Positions 1-22,892 of a stretch of 64,000 nt of DNA are shown piece after piece. The notes under the pieces were generated by a model, which saw only the letters and a program-made list of their open reading frames with translations, ran no database searches and was not told where the DNA came from. This DNA comes from Parvibaculum sp. (GTDB lineage: Bacteria > Pseudomonadota > Alphaproteobacteria > Parvibaculales > Parvibaculaceae). The stretch lies in the NCBI RefSeq assembly GCF_030694575.1, contig NZ_JAUYUS010000024.1, positions 1 to 64,000 of the forward strand, given 5' to 3'. Position 1 is the first letter of the stretch. Each line of letters opens with the position of its first letter. A program made the position numbers and the translations under genes.

Positions 1-470
1 CAAGACAGAAGTCATAAAACAGCTGCGCCGGCGCCACCTGCGTTCCCATCATCGCTCTGCCCTCCGATAAGCACAGCACGATGGAATCACGCACCGAAGG
101 CCCGTTCAACCGCCGACTTAATCAACACAATCCGCCAGAAGGGGACACTCAACGCTGATCGAAGAGCGGCACCCACACAGCGCACGCGGCAGCCTGCCAC
201 CCGCCACCCCTGCCCTTACTCGACGCTTCCGTGATGCGACGGGGCGGGAAGCTGAGCGTTCTCGATCTCCACGCCCACCCTGGTGCATCACCGAGCCCAA
301 CAGGCTCAAATGTTCAACAGACTCCGCTTTCCGCTGGGCAAAAGCTGGGACTCAGGGCGACGCTTCCGAGTCCGGTTCCGCGCTCCCTTGAATGGCTCTT
401 TACCTCTCAGATCGGGCATGATACCCAATCTCGAAAAGTTCGGGTATGAGACTCAAACTTGGGCTCGAAG
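1..470. other. Leading stretch without a convincing gene
   Basis: Short open frames on both strands overlap one another here, and none has a recognisable motif or a good ribosome-binding site. The stretch probably holds the promoter of the operon that starts near 471, but I could not pick a convincing -35/-10 pair. A gene lying mostly outside the window to the left cannot be excluded. Confidence 0.4.
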
Positions 471-1007
471 ATGCGTCTGGTCACGACACGGGAAGCGTCC
501 CGCCTTACGGGCCTCTCGACGAACAAGCTTCGCGAGTGGACCAGCAGACGCGCGCTCATTCCCGCCGACGTTCCCCCGAAGAGCCAAGGTTCGCCGGCCC
601 GGTATTCTTGGCAAACGATTCTGCTGCTTCGGATTGCCGTCACGTTGCGCGACCGCTTCCACCTCGAACTGCAAGCCCATCGCCAGGTTCTTACCAGTCT
701 GCACACGAGTCTGCGAACCACGTCCTTCGTGTCTCTCTGGGGTAAGTCGCTCGCCATCGATCCCGATCAATGCTGGTCGTGGATTGACGATGCGGATTTC
801 GGCGCGGTTACGGGCGATGCGATCGTCGTTCGTCTATCGCCTCATCTCGACGCGCTCTCGCAGGATTTCGCCCTGCCCCGACCTTCGAGAATGCCGGGTC
901 AACTCGATCTCTTCCCGGCACGGCCCGTTGCCGGACCGCCACCGCCTACGGCTGCTCCCGCCCCGCATCGGTCGCAAGCAACGCAAAAGCGCCGGAGGTC
1001 GGCGTGA
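471..1007 (+). CDS. MerR-like HTH protein, first gene of a methylase/nuclease operon
   Basis: This is a small protein of about 178 residues. Its N-terminus (VTTREASRLTGLSTNKLREW) is typical of a MerR-like or excisionase-like winged helix, in which Ser-Thr-Asn-Lys starts the recognition helix. The middle is helical and the last 40 residues are rich in Pro, Ala and Arg. I see no metal or drug sensor domain. I chose ATG 471; a TTG at 459 is also in frame. The stop overlaps the GTG of the methylase gene (GTGA at 1004-1007), so translation is probably coupled. It may control the cassette, as C proteins do in restriction systems, or act as a specificity subunit; the sequence does not decide. A decayed copy lies at 22258-22731 on the other strand. 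Confidence 0.72.
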   Translation: MRLVTTREASRLTGLSTNKLREWTSRRALIPADVPPKSQGSPARYSWQTILLLRIAVTLRDRFHLELQAHRQVLTSLHTSLRTTSFVSLWGKSLAIDPDQCWSWIDDADFGAVTGDAIVVRLSPHLDALSQDFALPRPSRMPGQLDLFPARPVAGPPPPTAAPAPHRSQATQKRRRSA

Positions 1008-4000
1008 GCAGCCCAGCATTTAAAAAGGTACTGGAGGCGACGGGCTATCTGACCCCAGCCGGAAAGTCGGTGCCGGGATTGGTCACCGCTGGCGACCCAG
1101 CGTCGGCGAACCTGAAGAAGGTCTTCGCCGATGACCGGGTCGGCTTGAACGCCGACGCCGTGTTCACCGCGCAGAGCTCCGCCACGAGCATCTTCAAGGA
1201 TGCCGGAACGAACGAGCCGAGCGCCACCGATCTGAAGCGATGGCACGAAGCGGCATGGAATGTGGGAGTCGCACCGCTTCTGTGGATCATTACGCCCACG
1301 GAAGTGCGACTCTACGATTGCTACGCATCGCGCGCGGAGCGTCCGGACGACACCGCGCCGAGTCCCCTCGACAACTTCCCGCTCCAGTCCGAGGACCGAC
1401 TGCGTCTCCTCGATTCGATGTGTGGCCGTTTGGCGACCGAGACCGGCGCTTTCTGGTCGAGTGCTATCGGGGCCAAGATCAATCGCCAGCATCGCGTGGA
1501 TCGCGACCTGTTGGAGGAGATCAGCGCCCTTGAGGATCTGCTCACCGGCTCTGCATCGCCATCACGGCCCGGGGGGACCACGGGCGACATGCCGAGGGAG
1601 ATCGCCCAGCGCTTCATCGGCCGGTGCATCTTTACGTGGTATCTGCTCGACCGCGGAATCGCGCAGCCGTTCCTGCCGAAATCGCTTCCTCCGGATTTGA
1701 GCAAGATCTTCGACTCCACGACCACCGCCTTTTCACTGTTCAAATGGCTGCGTAAGACGTTCAACGGCGATCTGTTCCCGATGGACGATCCGGGCGCCGA
1801 GCGCGAACATCTCACAGACCAACATCTCGCGCTGTTTCAGGATTTCATCGAAGGGCGCAGCCTCGTCGCCTCACGCCGAGGCCAGGGACGCCTCTTCAGG
1901 TTCCGGTTCGATGCAATCCCGGTCGACCTCATCAGCTCGATCTACCAGCAGTTTGCACGATCGGCGGCAGAGGACGAGGCCGCTTCCCAAGGACTGCACT
2001 ATACGCCGATCGAACTCGTCCACCTGACCCTCGACCCCGTTTTCGAGCAGCTGCCGGCGAAAGCACGCATCATTGATCCCACCTGCGGCTCCGGCGCCTT
2101 TTTGGTGGAAGCGTTTCGCCGACTCGTTTGGCGTACGACGCAGGGACGCCCGGCCAGTCGAGAAGTCGTCCGGAATATTCTCTATACGCAGCTATTCGGA
2201 ATCGACATCAATCGGTCGGCGCTCGGCATTGCCGCGTTCAGCCTCTATCTCGCCGCGCTCGAACTCGACGAGCAGCCGATCAACGATGTTCGCGATCTAA
2301 AGTTTGACCATCTCATCGACACGACCCTGTTCGAGGCGGACACGATCGGTGAGACGCTCCCGGCGAAGCTGACCGATAGCGCATTCGACGCCGTCGTCGG
2401 CAATCCGCCCTGGACCTTCGTTCGGCGCGCCGACGGATCCCGGCCGCGGCAGTCGGGTCAAACCAAGACGCTGCGTCCGCGGCGCAGCCCCGACCAAGCG
2501 TTCCTGAGCGTCGCCGCCGATCTGGCGGGTGAGAGCGGACGCATCGGCATGGTGATGAAGGCCACGCCGTTTTTTTCCAAAGACGTCCATGCCGTGGCGG
2601 CGCGCTCCGCTCTTCTAGAGCGCCTGGCGCCTGTCGCCCTGGTCAATCTCTCTTTTCTGCGAAAGGAGGGTCTCTTCCCCGATGCGACCGGGCCGGCACT
2701 GCTCTTCTTCGCACGCTGTGCCTTGGCATCGACACCCGATCAGATGCTCGTCGGCTCGATACCCTGGACGCCCGACTTCAAGCGCACTGGCGTTTTCCAT
2801 TTCGGGCCGGCGGAAATACGGGCCGTGCCGTTGGCGCGCGTCCTCAGAACACCAACCGTTCTGAAAGCCGCAACCTTCGGCACCGTTCGCGATGGATGGT
2901 TGATCGACAAACTTGAGCAAGCCCTGCCGACGCTTGCAACCGTTTTGGACCATCTCGGTCGAACCGATGGCGAATTTCGGGGACAAGGTTTTCAGGTCCA
3001 CGGCGACGCCAATGAGCCACCAAAGCACTATCGCTCGCTCAAGGTAATCTCACCTGACGTCTTTACGCCATTCAGGATTGCAGAGGCCACCCTTCCGACT
3101 TTCATTCACAAGGTGCTGCACCGGCCTCGCCGCGAATCCATCTTCCGCGGTCCGTTGCTACTCTGTCCAAAGGGGGGAAACAAATCTGGTGCGGAACGGG
3201 GGCGATACATTGCCGCCGTTCATCCAGAAGATGTCCTCTACACGGAGAGTTTCTTCGGTGTGTCCTTCCGGGGTGCTGACACCACCTTTGCCTATGTTCT
3301 TTCCGGCATCCTAAACTCGAGTATCACGGCCTTCCAGTTCGCCTTTGGCGGCCCGACTTGGGGATTAGAACGTCCCACGGTCGAACCACACGATCTGCTG
3401 TCACTGCGTATTCCCCCCCTGTCCTCCACTGACGGACGACTCCTCAATGCGGTAGTCGATGCCGAGAAACAAGCCGCGACCAATCCCGAGGACAAGGACA
3501 ATCTCCACAAGCTAGATGAGGCTGTGTTCGATCTTTACGACCTTGAAGCCGACGAGCGCATCCTGGTCCGCGACAGCGTTGCGCGAGCGCGATACCTCAT
3601 CTTCGAGAATCGGGCCGAGCGGATCGGCGTGATCAAACCGCCGACGTCCGATCTGTTGAAGGCATATGCCAAACAGGTCGCGTGTTCCGTAGATGCCTAT
3701 CTGCGTACGCGGGGCGAACGTCACCTGGAAGCCATCGTTTACACGAAAGGGCTCACAAAAGGAGACCTGTCCACAGGCGTTCCCGGCATCACCGCCGTAC
3801 GTTTCGTCATGGCCCCTGGAGCCCCGAAGCGAGGCGCCGTCGTTCGCGAGGGCGATCCGGCCGATCTTGAGAGGCTCGCTGGACTGTTGCGCGGCCGCTT
3901 CGATGCCGACGTTCCGCCTTATCTGAACGAAAGACGGCAACTGCGCCTATACGGTCCGGACGATCTGTTCATCCTGAAGCCGACGGAAGCCCGCTATTGG

Positions 4001-4084
4001 ACCACCACCGTCGGGCTCAACGACGCCGACGTCATTCTCGCCGACCATTGGCTCAGAGGGCGAGATGCCGCTTCTTACGCCTGA
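1004..4084 (+). CDS. Eco57I-type N6-adenine DNA methyltransferase (restriction-modification)
   Basis: A 1026-residue protein with the amino-methyltransferase signatures of Eco57I/type IIG enzymes. The SAM-binding motif I is DPTCGSGAFL near residue 358, and the catalytic NPPW box is at about residues 467-470. The roughly 340 residues before motif I contain a stretch (WNVGVAPLLWIITPTEVRLY) like the N-terminal region of large type IIG-like methylases, but I see no clear PD-ExK set there. The 500 residues after NPPW should hold the target-recognition region. The product would methylate adenine in a specific DNA sequence. The GTG start overlaps the upstream stop by 4 bp, and the end overlaps the nuclease-candidate gene by 20 bp. 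Family assignment is firm; use in restriction rather than another defence scheme is inference. Confidence 0.85.
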   Translation: MSSPAFKKVLEATGYLTPAGKSVPGLVTAGDPASANLKKVFADDRVGLNADAVFTAQSSATSIFKDAGTNEPSATDLKRWHEAAWNVGVAPLLWIITPTEVRLYDCYASRAERPDDTAPSPLDNFPLQSEDRLRLLDSMCGRLATETGAFWSSAIGAKINRQHRVDRDLLEEISALEDLLTGSASPSRPGGTTGDMPREIAQRFIGRCIFTWYLLDRGIAQPFLPKSLPPDLSKIFDSTTTAFSLFKWLRKTFNGDLFPMDDPGAEREHLTDQHLALFQDFIEGRSLVASRRGQGRLFRFRFDAIPVDLISSIYQQFARSAAEDEAASQGLHYTPIELVHLTLDPVFEQLPAKARIIDPTCGSGAFLVEAFRRLVWRTTQGRPASREVVRNILYTQLFGIDINRSALGIAAFSLYLAALELDEQPINDVRDLKFDHLIDTTLFEADTIGETLPAKLTDSAFDAVVGNPPWTFVRRADGSRPRQSGQTKTLRPRRSPDQAFLSVAADLAGESGRIGMVMKATPFFSKDVHAVAARSALLERLAPVALVNLSFLRKEGLFPDATGPALLFFARCALASTPDQMLVGSIPWTPDFKRTGVFHFGPAEIRAVPLARVLRTPTVLKAATFGTVRDGWLIDKLEQALPTLATVLDHLGRTDGEFRGQGFQVHGDANEPPKHYRSLKVISPDVFTPFRIAEATLPTFIHKVLHRPRRESIFRGPLLLCPKGGNKSGAERGRYIAAVHPEDVLYTESFFGVSFRGADTTFAYVLSGILNSSITAFQFAFGGPTWGLERPTVEPHDLLSLRIPPLSSTDGRLLNAVVDAEKQAATNPEDKDNLHKLDEAVFDLYDLEADERILVRDSVARARYLIFENRAERIGVIKPPTSDLLKAYAKQVACSVDAYLRTRGERHLEAIVYTKGLTKGDLSTGVPGITAVRFVMAPGAPKRGAVVREGDPADLERLAGLLRGRFDADVPPYLNERRQLRLYGPDDLFILKPTEARYWTTTVGLNDADVILADHWLRGRDAASYA

Positions 4085-4715
4085 TATTCCTTTCGGCCAG
4101 CCCGCCTTCTCGCTTTCGTCGGATCAGATCGCCACGGTCATCGATCTCGTTTGCCGCGGCGCACAGGAAGCCCAGGAGGACATCACGTCTGGAATGCTCG
4201 AAGTCCCGACGACGATGATCGTCCGCAAAGCGATCCGGCGCGTGAAGAAGAGCCTGTCGCTCACCAACCTCGAAATCCGGGGCGAGCACGAACTGGAGGA
4301 TATGGCGACCACGGATGCGTCCATTCTCGGGCGGATCGATATCACCCTCAAGTTCCTGCATCAGTTCGGAAACGAGGACGCCTATGTCGCCGTCGAATGC
4401 AAGCGGGTCGGCGCCGGGCTGTCAGCCCTCAATTCGAGCTACGTCTCCAACGGTGTGGACCGCTTCGTCACGGGTCAATATGCCGCCGGCCACGAATGGG
4501 GGTTCATGCTCGGATACGTGTTGGCCTTGCCCGTTGAGTCCGTGGTCCAAACGATCGACGATCACCTGAAAAAATCCTATGGCGCCCCCGCCAAGCTGAC
4601 GCCGGAAACCGCCCACGCCTTGTCGCTCGCTATCCTCGAAGGTGTACTTATCCAGAAGGGCGGTCATGTAATTAGGATGAAGCACATCTTTGTGAACATG
4701 ACGGTAGCCGCGTAG
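4065..4715 (+). CDS. PD-(D/E)XK nuclease candidate of the methylase operon
   Basis: A 216-residue protein with a plausible PD-(D/E)XK core: an Asp in GRIDITLKF followed about 18 residues later by AYVAVECKRV, which supplies the E-x-K pair. This arrangement is usual for restriction endonucleases and small DNA-repair nucleases. An N-terminal helical region has several basic residues. It starts inside the end of the methylase gene, so the two are co-translated and presumably act on the same DNA. I did not recognise a named family. It could be the restriction subunit of the cassette or an accessory nuclease. Confidence 0.62.
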   Translation: MPLLTPDIPFGQPAFSLSSDQIATVIDLVCRGAQEAQEDITSGMLEVPTTMIVRKAIRRVKKSLSLTNLEIRGEHELEDMATTDASILGRIDITLKFLHQFGNEDAYVAVECKRVGAGLSALNSSYVSNGVDRFVTGQYAAGHEWGFMLGYVLALPVESVVQTIDDHLKKSYGAPAKLTPETAHALSLAILEGVLIQKGGHVIRMKHIFVNMTVAA

Positions 4716-5066
4716 ATGTTCTTCCCCAAGATTGGGAGCGGACACTTTGGAGCATTGCCGGTTGTCGATATGCAGATTTGAAGCGTTTGATTGAACTCTT
4801 AAGTGGTTGACCAGTCCCGGGAAACTGGACCGTTTTGAAGCTGCAAAATTCCAGTTTCGCATCGTCGTCTTGGCAGAGGACAAAACAATCAACCCATCAG
4901 TTCTGCTCTACTAAGGAGCCTGCGGGAACATGAAGATATCAACCCAGGGATAGCGGTCTGTTTCCCTCCCTATGACCGCTTCTGGCGCTTATGCGCCAAA
5001 AGCGAATGTGGAACTTGCTTCAAGTCCGAAAAGGTGAGCGGGCTTTAGATTATCGATCATGTGATG
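4716..5066. other. Intergenic stretch between convergent genes
   Basis: About 350 bp between the end of the nuclease candidate and the end of the acyl-CoA dehydrogenase, which converge. There is an imperfect inverted repeat near 4811-4828 (CCAGT to ACTGG around TCCCGGGA), which might serve in termination but lacks a T-tract. No supported gene or RNA is visible. Confidence 0.4.
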
Positions 5067-16654: not shown

Positions 16655-18301
16655 ATGAAGCCGAAAAATGAAAGTAACGCCGATCTCGATGTCATAGTGG
16701 TGGGCGCCGGTTTCTCCGGAATGCACATCCTGCACGAGTTTCTGAAACGCGACTACAATGTGCACCTTTTCGACGATGGAGAAGGGGTTGGGGGCACATG
16801 GGATAAAAACAATTACCCCGGTGCGCGAGTGGATTCCGAAGTATGGATCTACCAGTTCACGGATCCGCAGATCTGGCAGAACTATACGTTCACAGAGAAG
16901 TTCCCGACCTGGCGCGAATTGAAGCCCTATTTCAATTTCGTGGCGGACCAATGGGGCTTGCGCCCGCATATGACGTTCAAGACCCGCCTCGAAGGGGCGT
17001 CCTTCGACGAGAACGAGTGCGTGTGGCACGCCAAATTCAATGACGGCGTGACCCGGCGCGCGCGCCATCTTGTCTTGGCTATGGGGTCGACAACGACGCC
17101 GGTCATGCCGAAGTTTGCCGGTATCGAAAGCTTCAAGGGCGAATCCTATCATAGCGCTCGCTGGCCAAAGCAGGAGGTCTCGTTCAGCGGCAAACGTGTG
17201 GCCGTGATTGGCACCGGTGCCTCGGGCGTTCAGGTCATTCAAGAAGCCTCCAAGACGGCAGACCATCTAACGGTTTATCAGCGTACCCCCAATCTAGCTC
17301 TGCCTATGGGGCAGGAGAGATATACTAGGGACGAATACGCCAAGATGAAGCCGCTGATCTACCCCGCAATGGCATATAGCCGGCAAACCTTTGGTGGCTT
17401 TCCCTACGATCTGATCAATCGCCGATGGAACGATCTGAACGAAAGCGAGAGAAACCAGATGATGCGTCAGAACTGGGAGCAGAAGGGCTTCCGTTTCTGG
17501 TTGGGAGCGCCGGCCGATCTCTTCTTCGACGAGGAATGCAATCGAGCGCACTACAATTTCTGGCGTGATGAGACCCGCAAGCGGATCAAGAAGGAGCACT
17601 TGATCGAAATCCTCGCGCCGACGGAACCACCGCACCCCTTTGGTGCAAAGCGCCCCTGCCTTGAGCAGTGGTATTTCGATCTCTACAACCAGGACAATGT
17701 GGATTTGATCGATACGAATACGAGCCAGATCGAGCGCATTACCGAGAACGGGATTGTTGCAGGCGCCGTCGAGCGAGAGTTTGATTGCATTGTCTATGCA
17801 ACCGGTTTCGACAATTGCACCGGCGCGATTGGGGCTCTCGACATCAGGGATGGAACGGGACGGACCATTGGAGATGTCTGGGACGAGAAATACCTTACCT
17901 ATCTGGGCAAGATGGTTCCGGGCTTTCCCAACCTTCTCTTCACCTATGCGCTACAGAGCCCGTCGGCATTTCTCAATGGCCCCACAGCCGCCGAACTTGA
18001 AGGCGACTGGGTGGTGAATGTCGTCGAGGACATGAGCGCAAAAGGGATCCGGCGCTACGATGCCAAGCCGGATGCTGCCCACAAATGGGCGGAGAGATGC
18101 AACGACGTGGCCAATATGAGCCTGCTGCCCAAGGCGAAATCATGGTACATGGGCGCGAACGTGCCGGGCAAGCGCCCGGAAATACAGCCGTTCATCGGCG
18201 GCCAGGTCGCATACAGGGCTGCGCTGAACGAGGAAATCGAAATGGGCTACCCGAATCTGGTGCTCGAGAGGGCCTCGTCAGCCACCGCTGCGGCCGAGTA
18301 G
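16655..18301 (+). CDS. Flavin-dependent Baeyer-Villiger monooxygenase
   Basis: A 548-residue class B flavoprotein monooxygenase. The FAD Rossmann motif VVGAGFSGM is at residues 15-23, GGTW and YPGARVDSE follow, and the fingerprint F-x-G-x-x-x-H-x-x-x-W-P is met exactly by FKGESYHSARWP at residues 160-171. The NADPH motif is VIGTGASG at about 184. The active-site block YATGFDNCTGAIGALDI and the C-terminal WYMGANVPGK are also typical. It would insert oxygen next to a ketone, giving an ester or lactone. The segment after GGTW (DKNNYPGARVDSE) departs from the common YWNRYPGARCD pattern, suggesting a distinct subgroup. It follows the HSL-type hydrolase, which may open the lactone. Confidence 0.9.
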   Translation: MKPKNESNADLDVIVVGAGFSGMHILHEFLKRDYNVHLFDDGEGVGGTWDKNNYPGARVDSEVWIYQFTDPQIWQNYTFTEKFPTWRELKPYFNFVADQWGLRPHMTFKTRLEGASFDENECVWHAKFNDGVTRRARHLVLAMGSTTTPVMPKFAGIESFKGESYHSARWPKQEVSFSGKRVAVIGTGASGVQVIQEASKTADHLTVYQRTPNLALPMGQERYTRDEYAKMKPLIYPAMAYSRQTFGGFPYDLINRRWNDLNESERNQMMRQNWEQKGFRFWLGAPADLFFDEECNRAHYNFWRDETRKRIKKEHLIEILAPTEPPHPFGAKRPCLEQWYFDLYNQDNVDLIDTNTSQIERITENGIVAGAVEREFDCIVYATGFDNCTGAIGALDIRDGTGRTIGDVWDEKYLTYLGKMVPGFPNLLFTYALQSPSAFLNGPTAAELEGDWVVNVVEDMSAKGIRRYDAKPDAAHKWAERCNDVANMSLLPKAKSWYMGANVPGKRPEIQPFIGGQVAYRAALNEEIEMGYPNLVLERASSATAAAE

Positions 18302-18450
18302 CAAGTCGGGTCAGGTCGGAGTTGTAACAAGGGCGTGTAACATCGTGAGGTAAGGGCTTTCACACGTGCGAGGCGGTGCCGGATTTGGATCACTCCGACG
18401 GCACCGCCTTCGGAAGTTTCGACGAGTCGAATGGTCCTTCTTCCGAATAT

Positions 18451-18461
18451 AATCATTGACG
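18451..18461. promoter_or_regulatory. Weak operator-like site before the TetR gene
   Basis: AATCATTGACG matches the palindromic half of the cluster motif (AGTCA-R-TGACT) at 8 of its 10 arm positions. It lies about 120 bp upstream of the TetR gene, consistent with autoregulation. The second half of the 20-bp motif is not conserved, so this is only suggestive. Confidence 0.25.
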
Positions 18462-18579
18462 TAAAGTGAAGTATTGGCGGCAATAGGTAAATGGAGAAGT
18501 CAAGCCGGAAGCGTGTAAATCCAGTGCAGGATGGCAAGACCTCGATTTACTGAAATGGGGATGTCTGAGAAGGGATAGC

Positions 18580-19236
18580 TTGGTGGGAAGAACAGCCAAA
18601 GCGACAGAAAAACTGCCTTCCAAAGGCACAATACGTCCGCGCAAGCGGCTCACACGAGAAGAGCGCTCCGCTGATGTCCGCGAAGCTATATTCCAGGCTG
18701 CCGCGAAAGTCGTCGGGGAGTATGGATATGCAAATGCGTCGATTTCCAAGATCACGGAATTGGCCGGCTTTGCTCAGGGCACCTTCTATCTCTACTTCGA
18801 GTCGAGGCAGGAACTTTTCGATGAGTTGCTGCCCCATGTGGGCGCCGACATGTTGAGATATATCCGCCCGCGTGTCGCTGGCGCCAAGGACATCTATGAG
18901 ATGGAAGAGCGGGGCATCCGAGCTTTCTTCGATTATTTGAACGAGAATCCAGGTTTCATCCGTGTCCTGAACGAAGCCGAAACCGCCGCTCCGATCGCCC
19001 ACAGGAAGCACTATCAGGTGCTGGCGACAAAATATGTCGCTGCGTTGGAAAGGGCGGCGCGTGCGGGCGAAATCAAGAACTTCGATCGGGAAGAGCTTGA
19101 AACGGTCTCTTATATGATGATGTCTGCCCGCAGCTACCTCTATATGCGCTACTTCAAGAACAGGGATCAGGCAAAAAAACAATCCGAGAAGGTGATCAAA
19201 GCCTACATGAAAGTCGTGAAAAGCGGACTCAACTAA
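18580..19236 (+). CDS. TetR-family transcriptional regulator
   Basis: A 218-residue regulator. The N-terminal HTH is clear: VREAIFQAAAKVVGEYGYANASISKITELAGFAQGTFYLYFESRQELFDEL covers helices 1-4, with the GTFYLYF recognition-helix motif. The C-terminal ligand domain has no residues that identify an effector; similar proteins bind acyl-CoAs or hydrophobic substrates. The start is either TTG 18580 or GTG 18583, both after AGAAGGGA. About 30 basic residues precede the HTH. It sits in the centre of the catabolic cluster, with operator-like 20-bp motifs before three neighbouring units, and is the best candidate for their repressor. Confidence 0.88.
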   Translation: MVGRTAKATEKLPSKGTIRPRKRLTREERSADVREAIFQAAAKVVGEYGYANASISKITELAGFAQGTFYLYFESRQELFDELLPHVGADMLRYIRPRVAGAKDIYEMEERGIRAFFDYLNENPGFIRVLNEAETAAPIAHRKHYQVLATKYVAALERAARAGEIKNFDREELETVSYMMMSARSYLYMRYFKNRDQAKKQSEKVIKAYMKVVKSGLN

Positions 19237-22200: not shown

Positions 22201-22257
22201 CTAGCTTCTGACTACGGATTGATCGCGCAGGGCGCGGTGCGGTCCTGGCACCGATCT

Positions 22258-22731
22258 TCAGGCGAAGGTCAGATCGTCTGTTGCCTCCAAGCCTTTCTCG
22301 AATGCGGGCTGCTCACGCCACTTCCGGAGGGTTTGCATATCTTGTGACCGATGCCATGCACCAATGGCTGTGCAGGGAAAAAATTGAATTAGCCCGGCAT
22401 TCTCGACGGCCGGGCGGGGAAAAATTTCGCGAGTGGGCGACGATATGAGGCGACAGACGAATGCGGAACGCATCTTTCGCGAGCACGCCGTAATCCGCAT
22501 GGTCGATCCATGTGCAGCATTAACCCAGAAAGAAACGCATGACGCGGCGTGCAGACTCTGATGCAGGCTCGCAAAGACCTGACAATGGAGCTGCGATTCA
22601 GGGTGTAATCCATCGCGTAAGGTCACCGCAATCCTGAGGGGCGGGATTGTTTGCCAAGGATACCGTGTCGCCGAACCCTGCATCTGGGGAGGACTCAAAC
22701 TTCTCATCCCGTCGCACCACGGAAGTGTCAA
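22258..22731 (-). pseudogene. Decayed copy of the MerR-like gene and the start of the methylase gene
   Basis: On the minus strand, frame fragments match the operon at 0.5-1.1 kb. RYPWQTIPPLRIAVTLRD corresponds to RYSWQTILLLRIAVTLRD of the intact HTH protein, PRPAVENAGLIQFFP to its PRPSRMPGQLDLFP, and EQPAFEKGLEATDDLT to the methylase N-terminus SSPAFKKVLEATGYLT. The last match lies past a gene boundary, so this relic preserves the gene order. The matches shift frame, the N-terminal HTH is not preserved in frame, and the rest of the methylase and the nuclease are missing. The copy stops at about 22258, 60 bp after the SDR gene. Confidence 0.8.
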
Positions 22732-22748
22732 ACATGGTTACAGATGGC

Positions 22749-22758
22749 GGGGGGGGGG
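22749..22758. repeat. Run of ten G residues
   Basis: A homopolymer of ten G (C on the other strand) between the decayed cassette and the recombinase remnant. Such tracts slip easily in replication and sequencing, so the frame of anything across it is unreliable. No gene that would use it for phase variation is evident. Confidence 0.7.
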
Positions 22759-22892
22759 CGGGCTGCCTAGAGGCCCCTTCTTTGACCAACATTGAGTGGC
22801 CGCTCCTGGCGTAGAGCAGCCCTTCGAAGGGAAGAGGGAACTTGTTCGTTTAGCTAGGGTTTCATCTTCAACTACTGAGGCTTGATTCCGTT

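What the first reader, a model, noticed from the sequence alone, without database searches (positions are those of the whole stretch)
471..4715. Compact three-gene cassette: MerR-like HTH, Eco57I-type methylase, PD-(D/E)XK candidate
All three overlap, so they work as one unit. The HTH-methylase-small nuclease set does not match the standard type I, II, III, BREX or DISARM layouts I know. Presence of a decayed copy supports a mobile defence role. The HTH protein with a MerR-type fold at the front could be a regulator or a recognition subunit.
Basis: partly seen in the sequence, partly recalled or inferred. Interest (0 to 1): 0.5.

Follow-up and report, generated by a model that had tools for sequence, protein, structure and literature searches.

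The report
Self-regulated restriction-modification cassette with split nuclease
Three overlapping genes appear to form a mobile DNA-defence unit that marks the cell's own DNA, cuts unmarked DNA with a small separate enzyme, and is controlled by its own switch protein acting on a matching pair of DNA sites just upstream.

Summary
The three genes are real: HTH 471-1007, N6-adenine methylase 1004-4084, 216-aa protein 4065-4715. The 216-aa protein is very probably a PD-(D/E)XK nuclease: E46, D92, E111, K113 are invariant in 34 aligned sequences, the predicted topology fits, and BamHI/OkrAI head a middling fold comparison. Methylase and nuclease are a steady pair: 25 of 25 close loci, and the same 7 of 398 sampled phylum genomes. 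The methylase matches families that PADLOC labels Type IIG, but the E of EXK is missing at the corresponding place of its N-terminal domain in 33 of 33 aligned methylases, so the nuclease probably sits in the next gene. Against the closest relative (93% identical elsewhere) only the presumed target-recognition region is replaced (44%). New: a tandem 23-bp dyad just upstream of the HTH gene; it recurs before related HTH genes, not before unrelated first genes of similar cassettes. The HTH is best read as an autoregulatory controller, not a recognition subunit. The 'decayed copy' is real but partial: most of the HTH gene, about 75 nt of methylase, some upstream DNA. Verdict: a Type II restriction-modification system of unusual split architecture with a MerR-like controller; no activity tested.

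The parts
409..431 (+). operator dyad 1 (AGATCGGGCATGATACCCAATCT)
   Evidence: matrix trained without the window scores 31.7; best other site in 64 kb apart from dyad 2 is 9.8; maximum of 50 Markov sequences 18.2; only place in the 3.8-Mb genome within 3 mismatches of its pattern (that pattern does not reach dyad 2)
437..459 (+). operator dyad 2 (AGTTCGGGTATGAGACTCAAACT), centre 28 bp from dyad 1
   Evidence: matrix score 28.0
471..1007 (+). MerR-like HTH protein (178 aa), presumed autoregulatory controller
   Evidence: Pfam MerR_1 2.1e-5, 25 bits against cut-off 21.6 (scanned from 459); adjacent in 22 of 24 assessable close loci, in one of them (L032) split between two frames
1004..4084 (+). 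N6-adenine DNA methylase, 1026 aa, Type IIG-like architecture
   Evidence: N6_Mtase 1.5e-19, Eco57I 2.6e-10, MmeI_Mtase 3e-9; PADLOC REase_MTase_IIG 8e-31; structure matches M subunits, BpuSI, DrdV, MmeI, BrxX
1004..1318 (+). methylase N-terminal domain (aa 1-105): PD-(D/E)XK-like element order, E of EXK absent
   Evidence: helix/strand order; D51, I/L/V63, F64, K/M65 in 24 close rows and no E at column 63 in 33 of 33; profile comparison with intact Type IIG N-termini gave no support
2075..2095 (+). AdoMet motif DPTCGSG (aa 358-364)
   Evidence: D358, G362, G364 invariant in 32 rows
2402..2413 (+). catalytic motif NPPW (aa 467-470)
   Evidence: N467 and P469 invariant, P468 and W470 at least 90% in 32 rows
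2891..3283 (+). presumed target-recognition region (aa 630-760)
   Evidence: 44% identity at aa 630-700 and 70% at 700-760 against 93% elsewhere in the window/L022 pair; DNA 40-73% at 2881-3240
4065..4715 (+). 216-aa PD-(D/E)XK nuclease; E46 (4200-4202), D92 (4338-4340), E111 (4395-4397), K113 (4401-4403)
   Evidence: invariant in 34 of 34 rows, window included; AlphaFold2 pLDDT 82, pTM 0.83; VIA-align Z 7.8 BamHI, 7.6 OkrAI
22243..22811 (-). decayed partial copy: upstream flank, HTH remnant, first ~75 nt of methylase
   Evidence: no operator left there (best matrix score -1.6)

Best explanation
A mobile Type II restriction-modification system with gene order controller - methylase - nuclease. 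Inferred working: (1) on entry into a new cell the methylase is made and marks adenines at its target, chosen by the exchangeable region near aa 630-760; (2) the MerR-like HTH protein accumulates, binds the two tandem dyads at 409-459 and sets expression of the operon (autogenous control, as C proteins do at two-site C-boxes); (3) the 216-aa PD-(D/E)XK protein, whose start lies inside the methylase gene, cuts unmarked incoming DNA. The methylase has a Type IIG-like shape, but its N-terminal domain lacks the E of EXK, so cutting is assigned to the separate protein. Shown by sequence: gene structure, steady pairing, catalytic residues, replacement of the presumed target region, operator. Inferred: DNA binding, methylation, cleavage, timing, phage protection. 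Undecided: whether the nuclease reads DNA itself or is directed by the methylase.
For: Methylase families and motifs. Nuclease next to the methylase in 25 of 25 loci; the same 7 of 398 sampled phylum genomes hold a methylase match over most of the model and the nuclease, adjacent in all 7. E46/D92/E111/K113 invariant in 34 rows of 18-88% identity to the window, fitting topology, restriction endonucleases the largest group among the best structural matches. Target-region replacement with the rest intact. Operator: 21 of 21 training loci have a site scoring above 20 just upstream and 14 of 21 have two sites above 10. Held-out test: 5 of 5 plasmid loci with a related HTH have a site 22-61 bp before the HTH match (best site of the 10-kb locus in 4, second best in 1; scores 3.3-31.2); in 0 of 9 cassettes with another first gene does either of the two best sites lie within 150 bp before that gene. 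Some neighbours are defence genes: DpdF models match 2 of 94 flank proteins, PsyrT 2, a DISARM DrmD-type protein in L034, a full-length Type IIG protein in L023; integrases 5, resolvases 3, relaxases 2.
Against: No activity data. Foldseek found no PDB match to the nuclease at E<=1e-3, and unrelated Rep15 rows (Z 7.2) tie with BamHI, so motif conservation carries more weight than the fold match. No sigma-70-like promoter was found in 250-5060, so overlap of operator and promoter is unproven. Nuclease divergence co-varies weakly with target-region divergence (partial r 0.27, permutation p 0.003), which leaves the source of nuclease specificity open. Two held-out operator scores are low (L051 3.3, L048 6.2), and HTH-less L002 has an isolated site of 15.4 about 5 kb from the methylase. 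In the phylum search only the best 2 methylase and 7 nuclease candidates per genome were scored, so absence is not proven genome by genome.
Confidence: 0.8

Rival explanations
1. Split Type IIG enzyme: the nuclease has no specificity of its own, docks on the methylase (perhaps on its N-terminal domain) and cuts where the methylase's target-recognition region binds. This is a narrower form of the best explanation, not an alternative to restriction-modification.
For: Type IIG-like architecture; nuclease aa 1-144 differs by 6% in the pair whose target region differs by 44%; in the 11 closest pairs the nuclease N-part shows no partial correlation with the target region (-0.01). A split Type IIG pair was proposed for Haloferax HVO_A0006/HVO_A0237 (PMC4389544, passages).
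Against: Nuclease aa 145-216 does co-vary with the target region in those 11 pairs (partial r 0.53) and differs by 24% in the window/L022 pair; the correlation fades with more pairs (0.29 in 18, 0.11 in 30), and over all 231 pairs the N-part correlates more (0.28) than the C-part (0.14) (pairs not independent). BamHI-like size and fold suit an autonomous dimer.
Confidence: 0.35
2. The HTH protein is a DNA-recognition subunit of the enzyme rather than a regulator.
For: Adjacent in 22 of 24 assessable close loci, mostly with a 4-nt overlap.
Against: A related HTH in only 3 of 7 phylum-sample cassettes; other, weakly HTH-like or unassigned small first genes in distant cassettes; missing or a remnant in L042 and L029; its operator travels with it; the methylase has its own variable region.
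Confidence: 0.05
3. Solitary epigenetic methylase with a non-restricting accessory protein (for example a nuclease-fold protein acting in methylation-linked gene control).
For: No cleavage has been shown; PD-(D/E)XK folds occur in non-restriction roles (recalled).
Against: Intact catalytic set in 34 of 34 rows; mobility and some defence neighbours; steady pairing.
Confidence: 0.08

Closest known systems
Type IIG restriction-modification enzymes (BpuSI, DrdV, MmeI; PADLOC REase_MTase_IIG PDLC03603 and PDLC03623)
   Same: Size, N-domain + helical connector + gamma-class N6 methylase + recognition region; relative L014 matches PDLC03623 with 831 bits, protein 5-1021 to profile 5-1014 of 1022.
   Different: Type IIG is defined by nuclease and methylase in one chain (PMC4081073, passages). 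Here the N-domain lacks the EXK glutamate and a separate nuclease gene stands next to it.
Type II systems with controller (C) proteins (Kpn2I, EcoRV and others)
   Same: Small HTH gene in the operon, two tandem binding sites just upstream; a C-box holds two dimer sites partly overlapping a promoter (PMC6237814, passages).
   Different: The HTH is MerR-like, not XRE; the controller precedes the methylase, whereas C genes typically precede the nuclease gene (same paper).
Split Type IIG candidate HVO_A0006/HVO_A0237 of Haloferax volcanii
   Same: Separate PD-(D/E)XK protein and Type IIG-like methylase on one replicon, proposed as one possible pairing (PMC4389544, passages).
   Different: There the nuclease is a detached Type IIG N-terminus in another gene neighbourhood; here the methylase keeps an N-domain and the nuclease is an adjacent gene that did not match the Type IIG-like N-domain.
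Type IIH (AhdI)
   Same: Gamma-class methylase with a separate Type II nuclease (PMC4081073, passages).
   Different: AhdI has a separate S subunit; none here.
BREX PglX/BrxX and MADS mad1/mad2
   Same: Related methylase core; HTH resembles mad1 weakly (1.8e-4).
   Different: Scores far below curated cut-offs (59 against 400; 24 against 720), and the three overlapping genes leave no room for the other system genes.

Membership tests
Type II restriction-modification system | DNA methylase paired with a nuclease | tested here: met
   25 of 25 loci and 7 of 7 phylum-sample genomes
Type II restriction-modification system | cleaves unmethylated DNA at or near the methylase's site | not testable with these tools
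   needs enzyme assays; shared specificity not tested
Type IIG | N6 methylase core with IIG-type architecture | tested here: met
Type IIG | PD-(D/E)XK motif in the same chain, at the N-terminus | tested here: not met
   no E at aligned column 63 in 33 of 33 rows; a loose D...(E/Q)xK pattern matches 3 of 33 but at other places; L005 and L006 have a nearby E without the K
Type IIG | N-terminal domain homologous to a IIG nuclease domain | tested here: inconclusive
   hhalign probability 0.2% against five intact IIG N-termini; DrdV alignment spans the domain but at rmsd 11.6-11.8
Type IIH (AhdI-like) | separate specificity (S) subunit | tested here: not met
   no S gene in the cassette; variable region inside the methylase
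C-protein-controlled systems | tandem operator sites upstream of the controller gene | tested here: met
   binding itself not tested
C-protein family | XRE-type HTH protein | tested here: not met
   best family MerR_1
BREX | PglX above cut-off together with the other BREX genes | tested here: not met
   59 bits against 400; three genes only
MADS | MAD2 above cut-off together with the other mad genes | tested here: not met
   24 bits against 720
Type I / Type III | HsdR or Res helicase-nuclease gene in the unit | tested here: not met
   overlapping genes leave no room for one; helicase domains do occur among flanking proteins, assigned there to DISARM/Dpd-type models where looked at

The most novel reading that the evidence does not exclude
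A distinct split class of Type IIG-derived restriction system: the methylase keeps a dead nuclease-like N-domain as a docking platform, a separate BamHI-sized nuclease is recruited to it and takes its specificity from the methylase, so a swap of one methylase segment changes both activities at once, and the operon is timed by a MerR-type controller on a two-site operator. PADLOC, and possibly other catalogues, would then be filing half of the enzyme as a complete Type IIG protein.
Probability: 0.25. Interest if true: 0.65.

Novelty: new variant of a known kind. Interest (0 to 1): 0.5.

Why it matters
PADLOC labels the matching methylase models as single-chain Type IIG enzymes, which hides a separate nuclease gene; that nuclease matched no Pfam or PADLOC model at E<=1. 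If confirmed, the cassette is a compact restriction system whose specificity may change by exchanging one methylase segment, with a MerR-like controller on a defined operator, unlike the XRE-type C proteins described in the passages seen. The operator makes the control directly testable.

Tried and rejected
Viral contigs: neither nuclease nor methylase found a relative; phage records: none for the nuclease. Within the window's order only its own genome holds the nuclease (1 of 40). Single-sequence search of 385 genomes of the class: 8 matches, window included; 3 strong, 5 weak. The genome-contig scan rests on six short peptide patterns and reaches close relatives only. PDB sequence search with the nuclease profile: one irrelevant match; NCBIfam: one irrelevant match, E 0.053. 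N-domain profile against intact Type IIG N-termini and against the nuclease: no support; against PDB sequences: two irrelevant weak matches; the window's N-domain alone: no PADLOC match. The reading of the N-domain as a dead nuclease therefore rests on element order and overall architecture only. Fold tables: families not listed are not excluded. The methylase model is of moderate quality (pLDDT 67.9, pTM 0.43). Two nuclease matches were flagged with an internal TGA; both lie at or beyond the end of otherwise open frames of 331 and 254 aa that keep ECK (one search read the wrong strand and says nothing).

Literature: searches found no paper describing this cassette in their listings; the library holds only CC0/CC BY/CC BY-SA papers, and REBASE was not available.

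Rows dropped: L011, L012, L036, L002, L003, L042 from methylase column counts (truncated, fragmentary or frameshifted); also L037 and L040 (near-identical to L023 and L025) from the co-variation and operator tests. Flank scan: 94 chosen open frames of 200 aa or more, out of 216 frames of 130 aa or more in 23 loci; only the 25 commonest of 81 PADLOC and 79 Pfam families were shown. DrmD, DrmA and BrxH models can hit one and the same protein (L034), so family counts are not gene counts.
Full report
Observation. The window carries, on the + strand, an HTH gene (471-1007), a 1026-aa N6-adenine methylase gene (GTG, 1004-4084) and a 216-aa gene (4065-4715). They overlap by 4 and 20 nt. In 24 cassettes measured (window plus 23 loci), the methylase/nuclease overlap is 20, 17 or 11 nt, and the HTH/methylase overlap is 4 nt in 18. 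The window begins at base 1 of its contig, so only 470 bp upstream are known.

Distribution. A genome-contig scan gave 25 loci, methylase identity 56-88%; from the organism names these are alpha-, beta- and gammaproteobacteria (my assignment). All 25 hold the 216-aa protein next to the methylase. The HTH gene is adjacent in 22 of 24 assessable loci (L036 starts inside the methylase; L029 has a 26-aa remnant; L042 has none; in L032 it is split between two frames). In plasmids the methylase matches 108 records. I looked at 18 plasmid loci: 13 of 18 show small first gene - methylase - small third gene (in L006, L048 and L050 the first gene is not annotated but an open frame or HTH match is there); the other 5 are truncated (L002, L003), a fragment (L012), or have a divided or extra gene (L011, L051). 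In an even sample of 398 genomes of the phylum, 7, window included, have a methylase match over most of the model and exactly these 7 have the nuclease, adjacent in all; 7 further genomes match only the central methylase core and have no nuclease match (only the best 2 and 7 candidates per genome were scored).

Mobility. Against the closest relative L022 (titled a Rhodospirillaceae MAG) DNA identity is high from about 421 to 4740 and at background outside. Among 94 flanking proteins of 23 close loci, PADLOC models of DpdF match 2, PsyrT 2; a DrmD-type DISARM protein lies in L034 and a full-length Type IIG protein in L023; Pfam finds phage integrases (5), resolvases (3) and relaxases (2).

The nuclease. 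Pfam and PADLOC give no family at E<=1 and NCBIfam only an irrelevant weak one. In 34 rows of 18-88% identity to the window, E46, T50, D92, E111, K113, F134, M148 and H207 are invariant. AlphaFold2 (24 rows; pLDDT 82.2, pTM 0.83) gives two helices, strands 69-72, 93-97 and 108-115, helix 120-135, strand 145-152, helix 157-172, strands 189-196 and 202-211: D92 precedes one strand and E111-x-K113 lies in the next, as in PD-(D/E)XK enzymes (motif as described in PMC4389544). VIA-align puts BamHI (Z 7.8, rmsd 4.1, 138 aligned), OkrAI (7.6), BstYI (6.6), McrC (6.6) and SwaI (6.0) high, but unrelated Rep15 at 7.2 ties, and Foldseek gave nothing at E<=1e-3. The residue pattern is the stronger evidence.

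The methylase. Best families are N6_Mtase, Eco57I, MmeI_Mtase and PADLOC Type IIG models. The model (pLDDT 67.9) matches Type I M subunits, BsaXI, CamA, DrdV, MmeI, BpuSI and BrxX. Residues 1-105 show a PD-(D/E)XK-like order of elements, but the column where E of EXK would stand is I, L or V in the 24 close rows and never E in 33 rows; in distant L005 and L006 an E stands close by without the K. A canonical Type IIG protein exists elsewhere in the same genome (contig C91, L066, 1064 aa, with D...FELK); profile comparison of the N-domain with it and four relatives did not support homology. I therefore call the N-domain 'nuclease-like, lacking the glutamate', no more.

Specificity. Between window and L022 the methylase is 93% identical outside aa 630-760 and 44% inside aa 630-700, with DNA identity 40-65% at 2881-3180. 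That is what exchange of a target-recognition domain looks like. Across 22 proteins the nuclease co-varies weakly with this region once the core is accounted for (partial r 0.27, p 0.003; aa 1-144 0.28, aa 145-216 0.14, p 0.09; methylase C-terminus 0.51). In the 11 closest pairs the order is reversed: aa 145-216 co-varies (0.53) and aa 1-144 does not (-0.01), fading to 0.29 in 18 pairs and 0.11 in 30. Pairs are not independent and numbers are small. Whether the nuclease reads DNA itself stays open.

The controller. Upstream of the HTH gene there are two 23-bp dyads, consensus AGATCGGGTATgATACCCGATCT, 27-32 bp centre to centre where both score above 10 (14 of 21 loci plus the window). A matrix trained without the window scores its two sites 31.7 and 28.0; the next site in 64 kb scores 9.8 and the best of 50 Markov sequences 18.2. 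The seed consensus had been read from a table that included the window. In the whole 3.8-Mb genome the dyad-1 pattern with up to 3 mismatches occurs only at 409-431; this test is strict, as it does not find dyad 2 either. In five plasmid loci with a related HTH gene, not used for training, a site lies 22-61 bp before the HTH match in 5 of 5 (best in locus in 4, second in 1; scores 31.2 down to 3.3), while in 0 of 9 cassettes with another first gene does one of the two best sites lie within 150 bp before that gene. HTH-less L002 has an unrelated site of 15.4 elsewhere, and L029 keeps one of 11.2 beside its HTH remnant. L014 is telling: its methylase is only about 27% identical over the aligned part, yet HTH (53%) and operator (29.1; a training locus) are conserved. 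HTH and operator move together and apart from the enzyme, as a regulator would. No sigma-70-like promoter was recognised, so repression versus activation is unknown.

Decayed copy. At 22243-22811 (- strand) lie remnants matching window 133-251 and 572-1078 (66.7% and 65.5%), with the operator and HTH start missing and a stop inside. It supports an earlier copy in this genome but not a full second cassette.

Comparison. It works like a controller-bearing Type II restriction-modification system (C-box: PMC6237814, passages; C proteins: PMC4081073, and PMC12707154, passages). It is not a Type IIG enzyme by the single-chain definition (PMC4081073), nor Type IIH, BREX, MADS, Type I or III on the features tested. 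The nearest published idea found is the split Type IIG pair proposed for Haloferax (PMC4389544, passages). PMC6158711 and PMC11997821 were seen in passages only and concern other architectures. Searches listed no account of this cassette.

Verdict. An ordinary kind of defence (restriction-modification) in an unusual, widely spread and apparently mislabelled form, with a well-supported operator-controller pair. Interest 0.5.

Noticed in passing
L066 (G000 contig C91, core 18298-18984; frame 193-3387 of L066): The window's genome also carries a canonical single-chain Type IIG-like protein (1064 aa) with a D...FELK N-terminal motif, about 72% identical to plasmid copies in Rhodobacterales.
   Followed up: partly
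window 133-251 and 22700-22811 (-): DNA upstream of the cassette, including CTTCCGTGATGCGACGGGGCGGGAAG at 226-251, recurs next to the decayed copy; 2 matches in the window, none expected.
   Followed up: partly
L014 4330-8797: A cassette with a related HTH and operator but a methylase only about 27% identical: controller plus operator move independently of the enzyme.
   Followed up: yes
L002 and L003 6792-9687; L042 7989-11750: Relatives that are truncated (two Agrobacterium plasmids lack the HTH and methylase N-terminus) or frameshifted (Verminephrobacter), as expected of decaying mobile cassettes.
   Followed up: no
L023 15949-18783 (-): A full-length Type IIG protein (PDLC03598, 944 bits) lies about 4 kb downstream of the cassette in Bradyrhizobium iriomotense.
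   Followed up: yes
L034 3861-7022 (-): A DISARM DrmD-type protein (PDLC02621, 940 bits) ends the gene stretch just upstream of the cassette.
   Followed up: yes
L050 8718-10444: On a Paracoccus plasmid a sul2 gene predicted by PLSDB lies about 0.7 kb downstream of the cassette.
   Followed up: no
upstream of the HTH genes of L022, L025, L026, L034, L035, L044: A GTTTAC hexamer stands 13 nt before the -10-like core (TATGAT, TCTGAT, TGTGAT or CGTGAT) of the first dyad (read); the spacing is not that of a usual sigma-70 promoter.
   Followed up: no
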